NCBI GenBank assembly: GCA_003576845.1
Contig: QEVJ01000035.1
Location: 1 to 64,000, forward strand
Length of the DNA: 64,000 nt
DNA from: Planctomycetota bacterium
Lineage (GTDB): Bacteria; Planctomycetota; Planctomycetia; Pirellulales; PLA5
Reading direction: 5' to 3'
Shown: positions 45,576-54,092 of the stretch, one piece after another
Position numbering within the stretch: position 1 is the first letter of the stretch
Layout: each line of letters begins with the position of its first letter
Made by a program: the position numbers and the translations under genes
The notes under the pieces: model-generated
The model's database searches: none
What the model was told of the DNA's origin: nothing
Seen by the model: only the letters and a program-made list of their open reading frames with translations

Positions 45576-46271
45576 TCAATCCTCGGTTTTCTCGAATCGC
45601 AAGAAATACGATTCCTTGAGCAGGTCTTTCTTTTCCTCGACTTGCTTGAATCCGGCGTCGGTGATTTCTTTTGCGAAGACTTCTTGGCCCGCGCGGACGT
45701 GGTTCATTACCCAGTCGGTGCTTTTGCCTTGGACGCGGTGGAAGTCGATGAGGACGACCTGGCCTTTCGGCTTGAGCGCCTTGTGGATCGAGCGCATGGT
45801 CTTTTCCGGAAATTCGAAGTGGTGGTAGGTGTCGCAAATGAACACGAGATCGACGGACGCCGGCGGGAGCTTGACCGAATCGGCGGTGCAGACGACGCCC
45901 GCGATGTTCTTCATACCTTGCTCCTCGGCGAGCTTTTCGACGTGGGCGACGAACTCGTCGGAGATGTCGACGGCGTAAACCTTGCCGGCGTCGCCGACGA
46001 GCGGCGAGAACATGCGGGTGAAGAGGCCGGTTCCGGCGCCCACGTCGGCCACGGCCATGCCCTGCTTGAGACTGAGGACGGCGACGACCTCCTTGCGGCG
46101 ATCGAAGACGTCTCGGCCTTCCTTCTCGAACCGCTCGATGAATTCCGGCACGCGCGGATTCTCGAAACTCTTGTTGATGCCCGGATTGACGCTCTTGTCT
46201 TGCGCGACAAGCGACAGGGCGGTCGAGGCGAGGAGCAGAATGGCGACGGCGGGAATTGTACGACGGGGCAT
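45576..46271 (-). CDS. Class I SAM-dependent methyltransferase with signal peptide
   Basis: The 231-residue protein begins 'MPRRTIPAVAILLLASTALSLVAQ', a signal peptide, followed by the methyltransferase core: 'LSLKQGMAVADVGAGTGLFTRMFSPLVG' (motif I, SAM-binding), 'VYAVDISDEFV', 'VDLVFICDTYHHF' and 'LKPKGQVVLIDFHR'. Methyltransferases need cytoplasmic SAM, so export is odd. The gene shows a clean core, no frame break and no C-terminal extension. Similar leader-bearing methyltransferases occur in planctomycetes and other bacteria. The start could also be ATG 46283. Confidence 0.75.
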   Translation of the reverse strand: MPRRTIPAVAILLLASTALSLVAQDKSVNPGINKSFENPRVPEFIERFEKEGRDVFDRRKEVVAVLSLKQGMAVADVGAGTGLFTRMFSPLVGDAGKVYAVDISDEFVAHVEKLAEEQGMKNIAGVVCTADSVKLPPASVDLVFICDTYHHFEFPEKTMRSIHKALKPKGQVVLIDFHRVQGKSTDWVMNHVRAGQEVFAKEITDAGFKQVEEKKDLLKESYFLRFEKTED

Positions 46272-46509
46272 AGTGGATACCATGTCGATGAGATGGAAGG
46301 ACTCGTCAGCTTGCATTTTACCGCCGCCGGGGTGAGGCGTCGCATGGAAAACCGTGGAATCCTCGTCCGGGCGACAGTTGAGAATCTGGGCGATATTTTG
46401 GACGTGCTGATCGGTAATCCGGAACGCGGCGGCGAGCATGTGATTGAAATGTATTGATTGTGTCCGCGCCGACGATCGCGCGTCGCGTTTGCGAGCGGAG
46501 TCGATCTTC

Positions 46510-47388
46510 ATGCGCATTCCTCGCTACTGGGCAAAAGGCGAATTCCAGGTCGCCGACGCGCGGGGCAACCCAACCGCTTTCGACGGCTGGGGCTGGTCGT
46601 TTCATTCGGTCGACGAAGCGCGGGCGAACGGACGCGAGCAGGCCAGGCGAATTGCCGAGTTCGTTGCGTCGGGGCGCGATCCGGGGCGGTTCGGTTACTC
46701 CGGCTACGGCGACCGGCCAATTCGCGAGGAGATCAAGGAGGCGCTCGTTCACTGCGGCCAGGAGATCGGCCTGATTACGCGGAATGCTTACGGCTCGCTG
46801 GTGCTCAATTCGCCGTGCGTGCTGTTTGCGGATCTCGACTTCCCGACGGTCGTCGAACCGCCGCCGGGGTTCGTGAATCGGCTCAAGTTTGCGTTCTCGC
46901 CGCGGTTCCGGCGGGCGTGTCGGCGGACGGATGAGCAAGCAGTGTGGAACCGCGTCCGCGCGTGGGCGGAAGCCAATCCCGACCGCGCGTTCCGCCTGTA
47001 TCGAACGCCGAGCGGGATGCGGCTGTTGATGACGGACCGGCAATACGAACCGACGGCGGCGGAAACGATCGCCTTGCTCGAAACGCTGGGATCGGACCCG
47101 CTGTACGTACGGCTCACGAAGAATCAGGAGTGTTTTCGGGCGCGGCTGACCCCGAAGCCGTATCGCTGCGGGTTGCGGCCGCCCGAACGGCATTTCCCGT
47201 TCCACACGCCCGAAGTCGAGGCGCGATTCCGCAAGTGGGAGGCCGATTACGACGCGCGCTCGCGAAGCCATCGCGCGTGCGAACTCGTCGGCGAATTCGG
47301 CACGGCCTCGAGCGACGAGATTATCGCCCAGATTGTCCGGCTTCACGACGAACGGGCGTGTCAGCCGGCGGGCGCGCCGTTGGCGTGA
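46510..47388 (+). CDS. First gene of the helicase operon; family not recognised
   Basis: The 292-residue protein starts 'MRIPRYWAKGEFQVADARGNPT'. I recognise no family. Features: 'SPCVLFADLDFPTVV', 'RLYRTPSGMRLLMTDRQYEPTAAETIALL' and 'DPLYVRLTKNQECFRARLTPKPYRCG'. The acidic DLD motif, the 'RTPSGMRLL' segment and the later Arg/Lys-rich strand are weakly like archaeo-eukaryotic primase-fold proteins, but this is speculative. Its last codons overlap the next start as GTGA, so it is translationally coupled to the helicase gene. Confidence 0.65.
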   Translation: MRIPRYWAKGEFQVADARGNPTAFDGWGWSFHSVDEARANGREQARRIAEFVASGRDPGRFGYSGYGDRPIREEIKEALVHCGQEIGLITRNAYGSLVLNSPCVLFADLDFPTVVEPPPGFVNRLKFAFSPRFRRACRRTDEQAVWNRVRAWAEANPDRAFRLYRTPSGMRLLMTDRQYEPTAAETIALLETLGSDPLYVRLTKNQECFRARLTPKPYRCGLRPPERHFPFHTPEVEARFRKWEADYDARSRSHRACELVGEFGTASSDEIIAQIVRLHDERACQPAGAPLA

Positions 47389-49418
47389 GCGGCCGATTAC
47401 TTGCGTCGCGCCGCGAGTCGCGGCAGAATCTGGTCAGCGCGGCGCGAGAGAAGCGACTCGCGGTGCGCGAAGGATCGTGGCAGGAGAATGGAATCGTGAT
47501 CGAACTCGCGGCGCAAGAGACGGCGGGATTTGCCGAGAGCGGCTCGGGTGAGGTTTGGCGGTCGCCGGGCGGAATTCCCGTGCGATTTCGCGACGTGCCC
47601 GCGGATTTGGCGCGTGTCACCGGAGACGCGGCGGCGCTGCGGCTGCATCTGGAATACTGGCAGTTGCGGCTGCTGCGCGACTTCGACCAGTTGCTGTGTC
47701 TGGAAGGCCTGACGGGCGTCGAGCACCTGCCGCACCAGATCGAAACGGTTCGCAAAGTGCTCCGCCGCTTTCACGGGCGCGTGCTGCTCGCCGACGAGGT
47801 CGGTCTGGGTAAGACGATCGAAGCCTGCTTGCTGTTGCGCGAATACTTGCTCCGCGGGCTGGCGCGTCGCGTGCTGATTCTCGTGCCCACACCGCTCGTT
47901 TCGCAGTGGCGCGAGGAGCTGGCGACGAAGTTTCACCTCGACTTCGCCACGCCGCCGCGGACCGTTGCGGCCGACCGCGCCGAATGGTGGGCCCAGCACG
48001 ATCGCGTGCTGGCGTCGCTGGCCTTCGCCAAGAGCCGCAAACGGGCCGACGCCGTGGCCTCCGTTCCGTGGGATTTGGCGATCGTCGACGAGGCCCACCA
48101 TTGCAAGAACCGGGCGACGCAAAACTGGCGGCTCGTCAATGCGCTCAAACGGCGGCACCTGTTCCTGCTCAGCGCCACGCCGGTTCAGAACAACCTGCTC
48201 GAACTGTACAACCTGCTCACGTTGCTCGAACCGGGACATCTCAAGACCGAGTCGGACTTCAAGCGGCAGTACGTTCGCCGCGGCAATCCGCGCGACCCGC
48301 GAAACCGCGAACGATTGCGGTCGCTCTTAGGCGAAGTGATGGTCCGCAACACGCGAAGCCTCGTGCAGATGGACTTGCCGTCGCGATACGCTCATACGAT
48401 CCTCGCCGAGCCGACGGGAGAGGAAGCCGAGCTCTATCGGCGTCTCAACGAATACCTGCGGCGGCGGAAGTGCGCCGGAGGCGGACCCGCGGGCTTGGGC
48501 TTGCCGGGGGACGACGCGGACGAGCACGCGGAGCCTTCGCACGAGGAGTTCTCGCTTTCCGGCGAAAGCCCGCAGGCCTCGGAAGCGGCCGAATACTCTA
48601 ACGTCGACTCCGGCGTCGACGCTACTGGCTCACTACCTCCGCTGGGACGGCGGCAGCTCGGCGCGCTTCTGTTAGCGGCGGGCAGCCACGTCGGGGCGCT
48701 CGCCCAGTCGCTCGAAAACATCGTCGGAGACGATCCGGCGGCGCGGGACATCATCGCGCTCGCGCGGCGCGTCGAGCGGACTGCCAAAGACCGCCGCCTG
48801 GTCGAGTTACTACGCCAGAGCCGCGGCGAGAAGGTGCTGATCTTCGCGTCGTTCCGCCGCACGCTCGAACACATCCAGCAACTTCTCGCGGCCGAGAAAC
48901 TCGAATACGCCACGTACAGCGGCGCGGAGAGCGAGGCGGAGGAGGACGCCGCCGTGGCCGCGTTTCGCGACCGCGTGAGCGTGCTGCTCTGCTCGCAATC
49001 GGGCGGGGAAGGCCGCAATCTTCAGTTCGCCAATACGCTGGTCAACTTCGATTTGCCGTGGAATCCGATGCAGATCGAACAGCGCGTCGGCCGCATCCAT
49101 CGCATCGGGCAGACGCGGGACGTGTTCATTTTCAACTTGTGCACGGCCGGTTCGCTCGAAGCCCGGCTGTTGAATCTGCTCGAAGAAAAAATCCGCATGT
49201 TCGAGTTGGTCGTCGGCGAAGTCGGGTCGATCCTCGGCAACCTCCAGGGCGGCGAGGAGTTCGAATCGCTCGTGCTCGATCTGTGGCTGAAGTCGCGCGA
49301 CGATCGCGAGCTCGACGCCTCGTTCGACACGCTCGGGGCGACGTTGCTCGACGCGCAGGAAGAGTATTTGAAGGCCAAGGAACTAGACGAAGCCCTGTTC
49401 GGCGAGGAATTTCAATGA
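47385..49418 (+). CDS. SNF2-family helicase, RapA-like
   Basis: The 677-residue protein has a complete superfamily 2 SNF2 core: 'LLADEVGLGKTIEA' (Walker A, Lys143), 'VDEAHH' (235-239), 'LLSATPVQNN', and motif VI 'QRVGRIHRIGQ'. The 'DEVGLGKT' and 'RIHRIGQ' forms resemble RapA/HepA, an RNA-polymerase recycling ATPase, and SNF2 proteins of defence islands. An acidic, low-complexity insert separates the two lobes (about residues 365-425). The start is GTG 47385, overlapping the previous stop by 4 nt, and the stop overlaps the next start by 4 nt (ATGA). It is the centre of a three-gene operon. Confidence 0.88.
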   Translation: MSGRLLASRRESRQNLVSAAREKRLAVREGSWQENGIVIELAAQETAGFAESGSGEVWRSPGGIPVRFRDVPADLARVTGDAAALRLHLEYWQLRLLRDFDQLLCLEGLTGVEHLPHQIETVRKVLRRFHGRVLLADEVGLGKTIEACLLLREYLLRGLARRVLILVPTPLVSQWREELATKFHLDFATPPRTVAADRAEWWAQHDRVLASLAFAKSRKRADAVASVPWDLAIVDEAHHCKNRATQNWRLVNALKRRHLFLLSATPVQNNLLELYNLLTLLEPGHLKTESDFKRQYVRRGNPRDPRNRERLRSLLGEVMVRNTRSLVQMDLPSRYAHTILAEPTGEEAELYRRLNEYLRRRKCAGGGPAGLGLPGDDADEHAEPSHEEFSLSGESPQASEAAEYSNVDSGVDATGSLPPLGRRQLGALLLAAGSHVGALAQSLENIVGDDPAARDIIALARRVERTAKDRRLVELLRQSRGEKVLIFASFRRTLEHIQQLLAAEKLEYATYSGAESEAEEDAAVAAFRDRVSVLLCSQSGGEGRNLQFANTLVNFDLPWNPMQIEQRVGRIHRIGQTRDVFIFNLCTAGSLEARLLNLLEEKIRMFELVVGEVGSILGNLQGGEEFESLVLDLWLKSRDDRELDASFDTLGATLLDAQEEYLKAKELDEALFGEEFQ

Positions 49419-50461
49419 CGGCCGTCGCGGAGCAACTTCACGGTTTCGCCGCGGCGCTGTTGGAACGCCGCGGTGCCGCGGTGGACTGGCCGCCCGGCGA
49501 AGCGACCGGGGTGGCGCTCTTGCCGCCGGACGTCGCCCGCGTCATCGGGCTGGCGAGCGACGAGGTTCGCCTCGGCGGCGACGTCGGCAGTGGTGCCGGC
49601 GGGCAAGGGCTTGCGGTCAATCTGGCCGGCGACTTTCTCGAATGGACGGGCAAGCTGCTCGACGAAGAGCCGTGCGTCGGCGCGTTTCGCGTTCGCGAGG
49701 CGTATCTGAAGCGCAAGGACGTCGAAGAGGCCGTCGGCCGCGCGTTCGCGTGGCTGAACGCGAAGGTGAAGTATCGCGAATCGCGCGAAATGAGCGTCGA
49801 GTATCACACGTGGTGGTTCCACGGTGCGATCGCATCGGAGGATCGCTGGGAGACGCGGTTCTCGTTCTCGCTCAACGCCGAGACGGGCGTGGAACTCGAT
49901 TTGCCCGATCCGCTGTCGCTGTGGGAACTCGAACCGGCCGGGCAGGCGGCGTCTCAGGCAGAAGCGCCGCCCGCCACGGCCCCGCGAGCGCTCGGCATCG
50001 CGCGGCGACGGCTGTGGACGGTGGCAGAACCGTTCATAGCCCGCATGGACGACCGTCTGGCTCGCGACCGAAAACGGCTCAACGACTATTACCGCGCTCT
50101 GGTCCGCGAATCGGAGAAGAAGAAGGGCCGCGCCGGCGCTCCGCCCGATCCGGAGAAGATCGAGTCGACGAAGCGCGCCGTCGATCTGGAGCTACGCCGC
50201 AAGCTGGGGGAACTCGACGAGCGGTATGCGATGGAGGCGACGCTGCGGCCGGTGGCCCTCATTCGGACGCGGGTTCCGGTGCTCGCGGCCGACCTGTCCG
50301 TGTTCCGCAAACAAGCCCACCGCGTGCATCGGGTGTATTGGAACCCGCTAATCAAGCACTTCGAGCCGCTCGCGTGCAGCCGGTGCGGCGTCGGGACGTT
50401 TACCGTCGCGTTCGAGAACGAAAGCGTCGCGCCGCTCTGCGGAATATGCTTCCAGAAATAA
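49415..50461 (+). CDS. Third gene of the helicase operon: coiled coil and C-terminal zinc ribbon
   Basis: The 348-residue protein has no family name I can give. It has an N-terminal globular part (1-165), a long charged helix with 'RDRKRLNDYYRALVRESEKKKGR' (about 205-275) that looks like a coiled coil, and a C-terminal zinc ribbon with C321-x2-C324 and C342-x2-C345. The zinc ribbon suggests nucleic-acid or protein contact. The ATG overlaps the helicase stop by 4 nt. Since it shares a tightly overlapping operon with a SNF2 helicase, it is likely a functional partner. Confidence 0.75.
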   Translation: MTAVAEQLHGFAAALLERRGAAVDWPPGEATGVALLPPDVARVIGLASDEVRLGGDVGSGAGGQGLAVNLAGDFLEWTGKLLDEEPCVGAFRVREAYLKRKDVEEAVGRAFAWLNAKVKYRESREMSVEYHTWWFHGAIASEDRWETRFSFSLNAETGVELDLPDPLSLWELEPAGQAASQAEAPPATAPRALGIARRRLWTVAEPFIARMDDRLARDRKRLNDYYRALVRESEKKKGRAGAPPDPEKIESTKRAVDLELRRKLGELDERYAMEATLRPVALIRTRVPVLAADLSVFRKQAHRVHRVYWNPLIKHFEPLACSRCGVGTFTVAFENESVAPLCGICFQK

Positions 50462-53857: not shown

Positions 53858-53906
53858 ATCTGCTTTCATTCGGCGGCTTGCTCGACTAATCTGGGCGGAC
53901 GGGAAG

Positions 53907-53966
53907 GTTGAGTTGGTTACTTTTTTAACGCAGAGGCCGCGGAGGTTGCGCAGAGGGCGCAGAGAA
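53907..53966 (+). repeat. CGCAGAGG-type dispersed repeat, copy 2
   Basis: GTTGAGTTGG followed by TTTTTTAACGCAGAG and GCGCAGAGG-type units, as at 18692-18751. It lies upstream of the DUF1080 gene. Confidence 0.8.
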
Positions 53967-54092
53967 GAACGATACCGATGCGGTCCGCAGATGGCTCAGA
54001 TGTGCGCCGATTCGTCAGCGCTACTCGGCTCGCCGATATCAGTTCATTATAGGAATGCCTTTCCATCGTTATTCGCATCGAGGAGCGCTATT

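What the first reader, a model, noticed from the sequence alone, without database searches (positions are those of the whole stretch)
46510..50461. Three-gene operon around a SNF2/RapA-like helicase with two unrecognised partners
Three genes overlap by exactly 4 nt at both junctions (GTGA at 47385, ATGA at 49415), which implies coupled translation and probably fixed stoichiometry. The middle one is an intact SNF2 helicase with RapA-like motifs and an acidic linker between its lobes. The last has a coiled coil and a C-terminal zinc ribbon (C321/C324/C342/C345). The first has no family I recognise. No methylase, nuclease or phage gene is beside them, so neither DISARM nor a restriction system fits as seen. 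This is the best candidate in the window for an undescribed multi-protein system, for example in transcription recycling, DNA repair or defence.
Basis: partly seen in the sequence, partly recalled or inferred. Interest (0 to 1): 0.72.

Follow-up and report, generated by a model that had tools for sequence, protein, structure and literature searches.

The report
Split RapA-like DNA motor gene pair
Two of the three genes form a widespread, unnamed pair that encodes, as two separate proteins, the motor half and the tail half of a machine built like the E. coli protein RapA; the third gene is an unrelated neighbour, and the pair lacks most of the surface that RapA uses to grip RNA polymerase.

Summary
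The three-gene reading does not hold; a two-gene one does. Gene 1 (46510-47388) is an orphan family that occurs elsewhere without the other two: none of 33 other loci read around it holds the helicase or its partner, and none of 80 loci of the pair holds gene 1. The '4-nt overlap' between genes 1 and 2 is probably not a translation junction: homology to the two nearest helicases begins at a conserved GAATGGAATCGTG, so the helicase most likely starts at GTG 47496. Genes 2 and 3 are a real unit: partner directly downstream in 72 of 78 loci, nearby in the other 6, across about ten phyla and on cyanobacterial plasmids; 40 of 78 keep the 4-nt overlap. The helicase matches E. coli RapA up to residue 680. 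The partner, which matches no Pfam or NCBIfam family, matches RapA 709-967 by predicted fold (Z 9.1) and by profile comparison (score 46.8; shuffled controls at most 17.7), and adds a zinc ribbon. The pair is thus a split RapA architecture. RapA's RNA-polymerase-contact residues are not conserved, so RapA-type polymerase recycling is unlikely. No recurrent defence partner was found. Best reading: an undescribed two-subunit SNF2 DNA translocase; its biological role is unproven.

The parts
46510..47388 (+). Gene 1: orphan 292-aa family, not part of the conserved unit; predicted fold weakly like archaeo-eukaryotic primases
   Evidence: family real (full-length homologs, 28-46% identity) but never beside the pair elsewhere
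47389..47495 (+). Probable intergenic leader between gene 1 and the helicase, with a 15-nt inverted repeat (47407-47421 / 47453-47467)
   Evidence: not conserved; homology starts at 47496; fold -49.8 kcal/mol, z -1.7, not significant
47496..49418 (+). SNF2 helicase/translocase (about 640 aa; ORF open from 47385); equivalent of the RapA ATPase core, RapA residues about 108-690
47793..47816 (+). Walker A motif DEVGLGKT
   Evidence: invariant in alignment
48084..48101 (+). DEAH-box motif VDEAHH
   Evidence: conserved in alignment
48507..48629 (+). Acidic, variable linker between the two RecA lobes
49415..49418 (+). ATGA stop/start overlap that couples helicase and partner
   Evidence: same kind of overlap in 40 of 78 loci
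49415..50461 (+). Partner protein (348 aa): RapA Spacer + C-terminal-domain equivalent encoded as a separate subunit, plus a C-terminal zinc ribbon
49415..49714 (+). Spacer-like alpha+beta domain of the partner (residues 1-100, about RapA 709-800)
49763..50344 (+). CTD-like beta sheet with coiled-coil insertion (residues 117-310; coiled coil 205-270)
   Evidence: matches the published description of the RapA/BrxHII C-terminal domain (PMC12839542)
50375..50449 (+). Zinc ribbon C321/C324...C342/C345

Best explanation
Genes 2 and 3 encode one two-subunit SNF2-type double-stranded DNA translocase, a RapA architecture split into two proteins. The helicase supplies the ATPase core. The downstream protein supplies in trans what RapA carries at its C terminus (Spacer plus coiled-coil-bearing CTD) and adds a zinc ribbon that RapA lacks. 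Translational coupling and conserved order suggest that the two are made together and form a stable complex (inferred). The motor probably moves along DNA and remodels or strips bound protein; the partner probably positions or regulates it and helps to grip DNA or target (inferred from family knowledge). Because RapA's RNA-polymerase-contact patch is missing, the target is probably not the RapA site on RNA polymerase. It is a patchy accessory gene pair, sometimes carried on mobilizable plasmids. Gene 1 is not part of it.
For: Linkage: a genome scan with the helicase C terminus found 574 relatives; of 80 kept, 78 have the partner on the same strand downstream (72 within about 320 bp, 6 further, up to 3.5 kb), one contig ends at the gene, one lacks it, and none has gene 1. 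In the phylum sample the helicase lies directly upstream in 16 of 19 partner homologs. Four-nt overlap in 40 of 78. Split RapA: the helicase aligns to RapA 155-342 and 494-680; the partner's model aligns over residues 1-289 to RapA 709-967, Z 9.1, 228 aligned, and of the listed PDB matches only RapA entries span so much. Profile-profile score 46.8, P 8.8e-6, collinear (partner 6-217 on RapA about 710-915); 60 column-shuffled controls reach 17.7 at most. The secondary structure fits the published RapA/BrxHII C-terminal domain (PMC12839542). Not RapA-type: 5 of 6 flap-tip-helix contacts (PMC8501970) are hydrophobic in all or nearly all gamma RapAs and in 0-25% of 20 pair helicases; the sixth in 30%. 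Single origin: the pair helicases form one group, 93/91.
Against: The partner-RapA link is remote: 13% identity, rmsd 6.3, Foldseek alone gave no significant hit, and the RapA_C Pfam model does not match it. No physical interaction, ATPase or DNA activity was tested. Which complex it acts on is unknown. Loss of the E. coli contact residues does not exclude another way of binding RNA polymerase.
Confidence: 0.66

Rival explanations
1. The pair is a true RapA equivalent: it binds RNA polymerase and recycles or removes stalled polymerase, with the zinc ribbon replacing the lost N-terminal domain as the polymerase contact.
For: RapA domain order in two pieces. RapA_C was found above its cut-off in only 1 of 57 related genomes, so most lack a RapA by that test.
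Against: RapA's polymerase-contact residues are not conserved. The pair is patchily distributed (8 of 57 and 20 of 294 genomes), unlike a housekeeping factor. The window's own genome also holds a full-length RapA-like helicase with a RapA_C match. No RapA-type N-terminal domain is evident.
Confidence: 0.15
2. The pair is a stand-alone anti-phage or anti-plasmid defence system: the translocase senses or processes foreign DNA, as DrmD, BrxHII and ArmA are thought to do inside larger systems.
For: The helicase is nearer to DrmD-type than to E. coli RapA on the tree and scores best against DrmD models. Patchy, sometimes on mobilizable plasmids beside PIN, RelE and Uma2 genes. A variant in G053 has a protein-kinase domain fused to the helicase.
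Against: No nuclease or methylase in the unit. Of 177 neighbour proteins only scattered ones match defence models, and none recurs; neighbours are mostly housekeeping. Genome neighbours next to the pair differ from locus to locus.
Confidence: 0.27
3. The three genes are one operon and one complex.
For: They are contiguous on one strand here, with at most about 107 nt between genes 1 and 2; co-transcription here is possible.
Against: Gene 1 homologs in 33 other loci have no helicase or partner nearby; 0 of 80 pair loci have gene 1. Both families share a genome as often as chance predicts: 2 of 294 against 1.6 expected.
Confidence: 0.03

Closest known systems
E. coli RapA (HepA), RNA-polymerase-associated Swi2/Snf2 ATPase
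   Same: SNF2 core, and a Spacer plus coiled-coil-bearing C-terminal domain in the same order
   Different: Two proteins instead of one; added zinc ribbon; no evident tandem-Tudor N-terminal domain; polymerase-contact residues lost
DISARM DrmD
   Same: Best-scoring helicase family (263 bits) and nearest group on the tree
   Different: Far below the curated cut-offs (950 and 610); no drmA, drmB or methylase next to it; DrmD-type relatives are single chains of 920-1100 aa
BREX BrxHII (type 3) and ARMADA ArmA helicases
   Same: RapA-parallel architecture: Swi2/Snf2, inactive REase-like domain, C-terminal alpha+beta domain with coiled-coil insert (PMC12839542, PMC12458937)
   Different: BrxHII is a single chain with a Tudor domain; both sit inside BREX or ARMADA operons, and none of those genes is here
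DISARM DrmA/DrmB
   Same: Precedent for a helicase whose C-terminal module became a separate adjacent gene (PMC12458937)
   Different: YprA family with OB/DUF1998, not a RapA-type Spacer/CTD

Membership tests
RapA (NCBIfam NF003426) | Score over the equivalog cut-off (576 bits) | tested here: not met
   232.6 bits
RapA (NCBIfam NF003426) | SNF2 ATPase core with intact motifs | tested here: met
RapA (NCBIfam NF003426) | Spacer + C-terminal domain after the core | tested here: met
   Supplied by the separate partner protein; (remote, structure and profile)
RapA (NCBIfam NF003426) | N-terminal tandem Tudor-like domain | tested here: inconclusive
   Only about 40-80 non-conserved residues precede the core here; N termini differ between clades; no fold made of the N terminus
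RapA (NCBIfam NF003426) | RNA-polymerase contact residues (flap-tip-helix patch, alpha/beta salt bridges) | tested here: not met
   sites from PMC8501970
RapA (NCBIfam NF003426) | Binds RNA polymerase and stimulates its recycling | not testable with these tools
   needs biochemistry
DISARM (DrmD) | DrmD score over cut-off (950 / 610 bits) | tested here: not met
   263 and 234 bits
DISARM (DrmD) | Linked drmA, drmB and a DNA methylase | tested here: not met
   absent from the immediate flanks in the window and not recurrent in 80 loci
BREX (BrxHI/BrxHII) | Linked pglZ, brxC and pglX | tested here: not met
   none in the immediate flanks in the window and none recurrent beside the pair
Dpd (DpdE) | DpdE score over cut-off (500 bits) | tested here: not met
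   228 bits
Archaeo-eukaryotic primase (gene 1 only) | Catalytic-domain fold and motifs | tested here: inconclusive
   Best solved matches are primases, but only Z 5.5 and below; invariant DxD at 108/110, the usual motif-II histidine position looks like R171

The most novel reading that the evidence does not exclude
A stand-alone two-subunit DNA translocase, found in about ten phyla and on mobilizable plasmids, took the RapA body plan, lost the RNA-polymerase grip, moved its C-terminal half to a separate zinc-ribbon subunit, and now acts on other DNA-bound targets (invading DNA, or repair and replication roadblocks), as an unnamed system whose two parts are still annotated 'SNF2-related protein' and 'hypothetical protein'.
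Probability: 0.45. Interest if true: 0.7.

Novelty: new variant of a known kind. Interest (0 to 1): 0.52.

Why it matters
RapA-type C-terminal domains had been reported to have no homologs outside RapA/BrxHII helicases (PMC12839542). A widespread split form turns an unannotated protein family into a testable motor subunit. It lets the Spacer/CTD be added to or withheld from the motor in a tube, and helps sort RapA-like proteins that serve RNA polymerase from those that do not.

Tried and rejected
Three-gene system: rejected. Pfam, NCBIfam, PADLOC and PHROGs on genes 1 and 3: no family; Pfam and NCBIfam on other partner homologs: none over a cut-off. PDB by sequence: nothing for gene 1; only chance-level zinc-finger matches for the partner. 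Foldseek on both models: nothing significant. The partner against E. coli RapA alone by HMM or HHalign was marginal (E 0.002 at best); it became clear only with planctomycete RapA-like C termini in the template. Genome scan with the wide partner alignment failed for lack of a conserved stretch, so the helicase C terminus was used; that scan kept the 80 best of 574, so it is not a census. Viral contigs and phage records: no copy. Defence-island test: no recurrent defence neighbour, but only two neighbours a side were scanned, with no matched control set. Conserved neighbour for gene 1: none. Stem-loop before the helicase: not better than shuffles (z -1.7). Synteny with the congener G001: flanks scattered over contigs, uninformative.
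Full report
OBSERVATION. The window is a planctomycete-like contig. Three same-strand ORFs are present. The middle one is an intact SNF2 helicase. The third ends in a four-cysteine ribbon and carries a helical hairpin. The second junction (ATGA, 49415-49418) is real. The first (GTGA, 47385) is a string match but probably not a start: the N-terminal 37-53 residues of that ORF are not conserved. Against the two nearest relatives, DNA homology begins at GAATGGAATCGTG, i.e. at GTG 47496; in L120 that GTG is the first start codon of the ORF. It also has the better Shine-Dalgarno match. Codon usage does not separate the two starts, so this stays an inference. The helicase then begins 107 nt after gene 1 stops.

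WHICH GENES BELONG TOGETHER. Gene 1 homologs occur in 13 of 57 order-level relatives and 23 of 294 phylum-level genomes, patchily. No helicase or partner homolog lies in the neighbourhoods read: up to about 10 kb a side in 11 relatives plus one partial copy, and 1.5 kb a side in 22 loci (one of them a repeat of those eleven). Their neighbours are assorted housekeeping genes. The partner family occurs in 8 of 57 and 20 of 294 genomes. In seven relatives it lies directly behind a close helicase homolog, and in 16 of 19 phylum loci the helicase is directly upstream. Genomes with both gene 1 and the partner number 2 of 294, against about 1.6 expected by chance. A scan of 84,980 species genomes with the helicase's C-terminal signature gave 574 relatives; of the 80 best, 78 carry the partner downstream (72 within about 320 bp, 6 further off, up to 3.5 kb), one contig ends there, one lacks it, and none has gene 1. 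Record titles span Planctomycetota, Elusimicrobiota, Hydrogenedentota, Deltaproteobacteria and other Pseudomonadota, KSB1, Eisenbacteria, Cyanobacteriota, Chloroflexota, Nitrospirota and Acidobacteriota. The unit is therefore a two-gene pair.

WHAT THE PAIR IS. BLASTP aligns the helicase with E. coli RapA 155-342 and 494-680; it then stops. The partner's AlphaFold model (mean pLDDT 89) has an N-terminal alpha+beta domain, then a beta sheet with a long coiled-coil hairpin inserted before its last strands, then the zinc ribbon. A structural second look puts RapA first: 228 residues aligned, model 1-289 on RapA 709-967, Z 9.1, rmsd 6.3. Nearly all other high rows cover little more than the coiled coil. 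Z values near 8 can be chance, so profiles were used as an independent test. The partner family against an alignment of gamma RapA and planctomycete RapA-like C termini scores 46.8 (P 8.8e-6), collinear with the fold match; 60 column-shuffled templates reach at most 17.7. That the one multi-domain match is to the missing half of the very protein that the neighbouring gene resembles makes coincidence unlikely. A 2026 study describes RapA and BrxHII C termini as an inactive REase-like domain followed by a five-stranded sheet with a coiled-coil insert, the latter with no homologs elsewhere (PMC12839542); the partner fits that description. The pair is thus a split RapA architecture with a zinc ribbon added.

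DOES IT WORK LIKE RapA? E. coli RapA holds RNA polymerase by a hydrophobic patch for the beta flap tip helix (L216, V217, L220, L229, I540, I541) and by salt bridges (PMC8501970). In 20 pair helicases five of these positions are hydrophobic in 0-25% and the sixth (229) in 30%; the basic and acidic partners are also mostly lost, as in DrmD-like single-chain helicases. No RapA-type N-terminal domain is evident; N termini vary by clade (short in cyanobacteria, about 200 aa longer in deltaproteobacteria). So the mechanism most likely shared with RapA is ATP-driven movement on double-stranded DNA, not RNA polymerase binding at the same site. On the tree the pair helicases form one group (93/91; 95% of bootstrap trees), nearer to DrmD-type helicases than to RapA, with long branches that advise caution. 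One group fits a single ancient split.

CONTEXT. The pair usually stands alone: few neighbours are close enough to share an operon. Neighbour proteins (177, two a side) show only scattered defence-model matches, none recurrent, and mostly housekeeping families. Six plasmids carry the partner gene, five of them cyanobacterial; four records are mobilizable, and in the four looked up it lies behind a gene annotated 'SNF2-related protein' (once 'type III restriction enzyme res subunit') and is itself called 'hypothetical protein'. No phage or viral contig carried it. An accessory role is likely; defence is possible but not shown.

STEPS SHOWN AND INFERRED. Shown here by computation: linkage of the pair, independence of gene 1, conserved zinc ligands, RapA-like split, loss of the RNA polymerase patch. 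Inferred: complex formation, DNA translocation, the partner's regulatory or gripping role, the helicase start. Unknown: the target and the biological purpose. Five literature searches of the held library found no description of the pair; subscription papers are not covered.

GENE 1. Its model (pLDDT 93) best matches archaeo-eukaryotic primase catalytic domains, but only at Z 5.5 and below, so this is a lead only. It keeps an invariant D108/D110, R210/R212, H279-D280 and a C-terminal alanine in a mostly conserved (L)PLA tail.

Noticed in passing
window 53892-53971: A dispersed 60-80 bp repeat (AACGCAGAGGCCGCGGAGGTTGCGCAGAG core) with about 25-30 copies at 80-92% identity in the congener genome G001; one copy in this window.
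   Followed up: partly
L210:1204-4341 and L210:4338-6713 (genome G053): A variant of the pair: the helicase carries an N-terminal Ser/Thr-kinase domain, and the 791-aa partner has a large extra C-terminal part. It hints at a signalling or defence version.
   Followed up: no
L214:159-2978 (own genome, contig C263): The window's genome also encodes a full-length (939 aa) RapA-like helicase with a RapA_C match over the cut-off.
   Followed up: partly
window 46510-47388 family (e.g. L026, L027, L028): One branch of the gene 1 family has about 40 hydrophobic residues inserted after the FADxDF motif, apparently a membrane hairpin, and nearly all members end in (L)PLA.
   Followed up: no
L192, L193, L197, L166, L194 between helicase and partner: In some cyanobacteria one to three genes lie between the two (23S-IVP-like four-helix-bundle protein, glycosyltransferase, EamA transporter, or an opposite-strand gene), while the pair stays in the same neighbourhood.
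   Followed up: partly
window 45576-46511: Divergent SAM-dependent methyltransferase (Methyltransf_11) with a likely signal sequence inside its ORF, so its true start is probably downstream of 46511 on its own strand.
   Followed up: no
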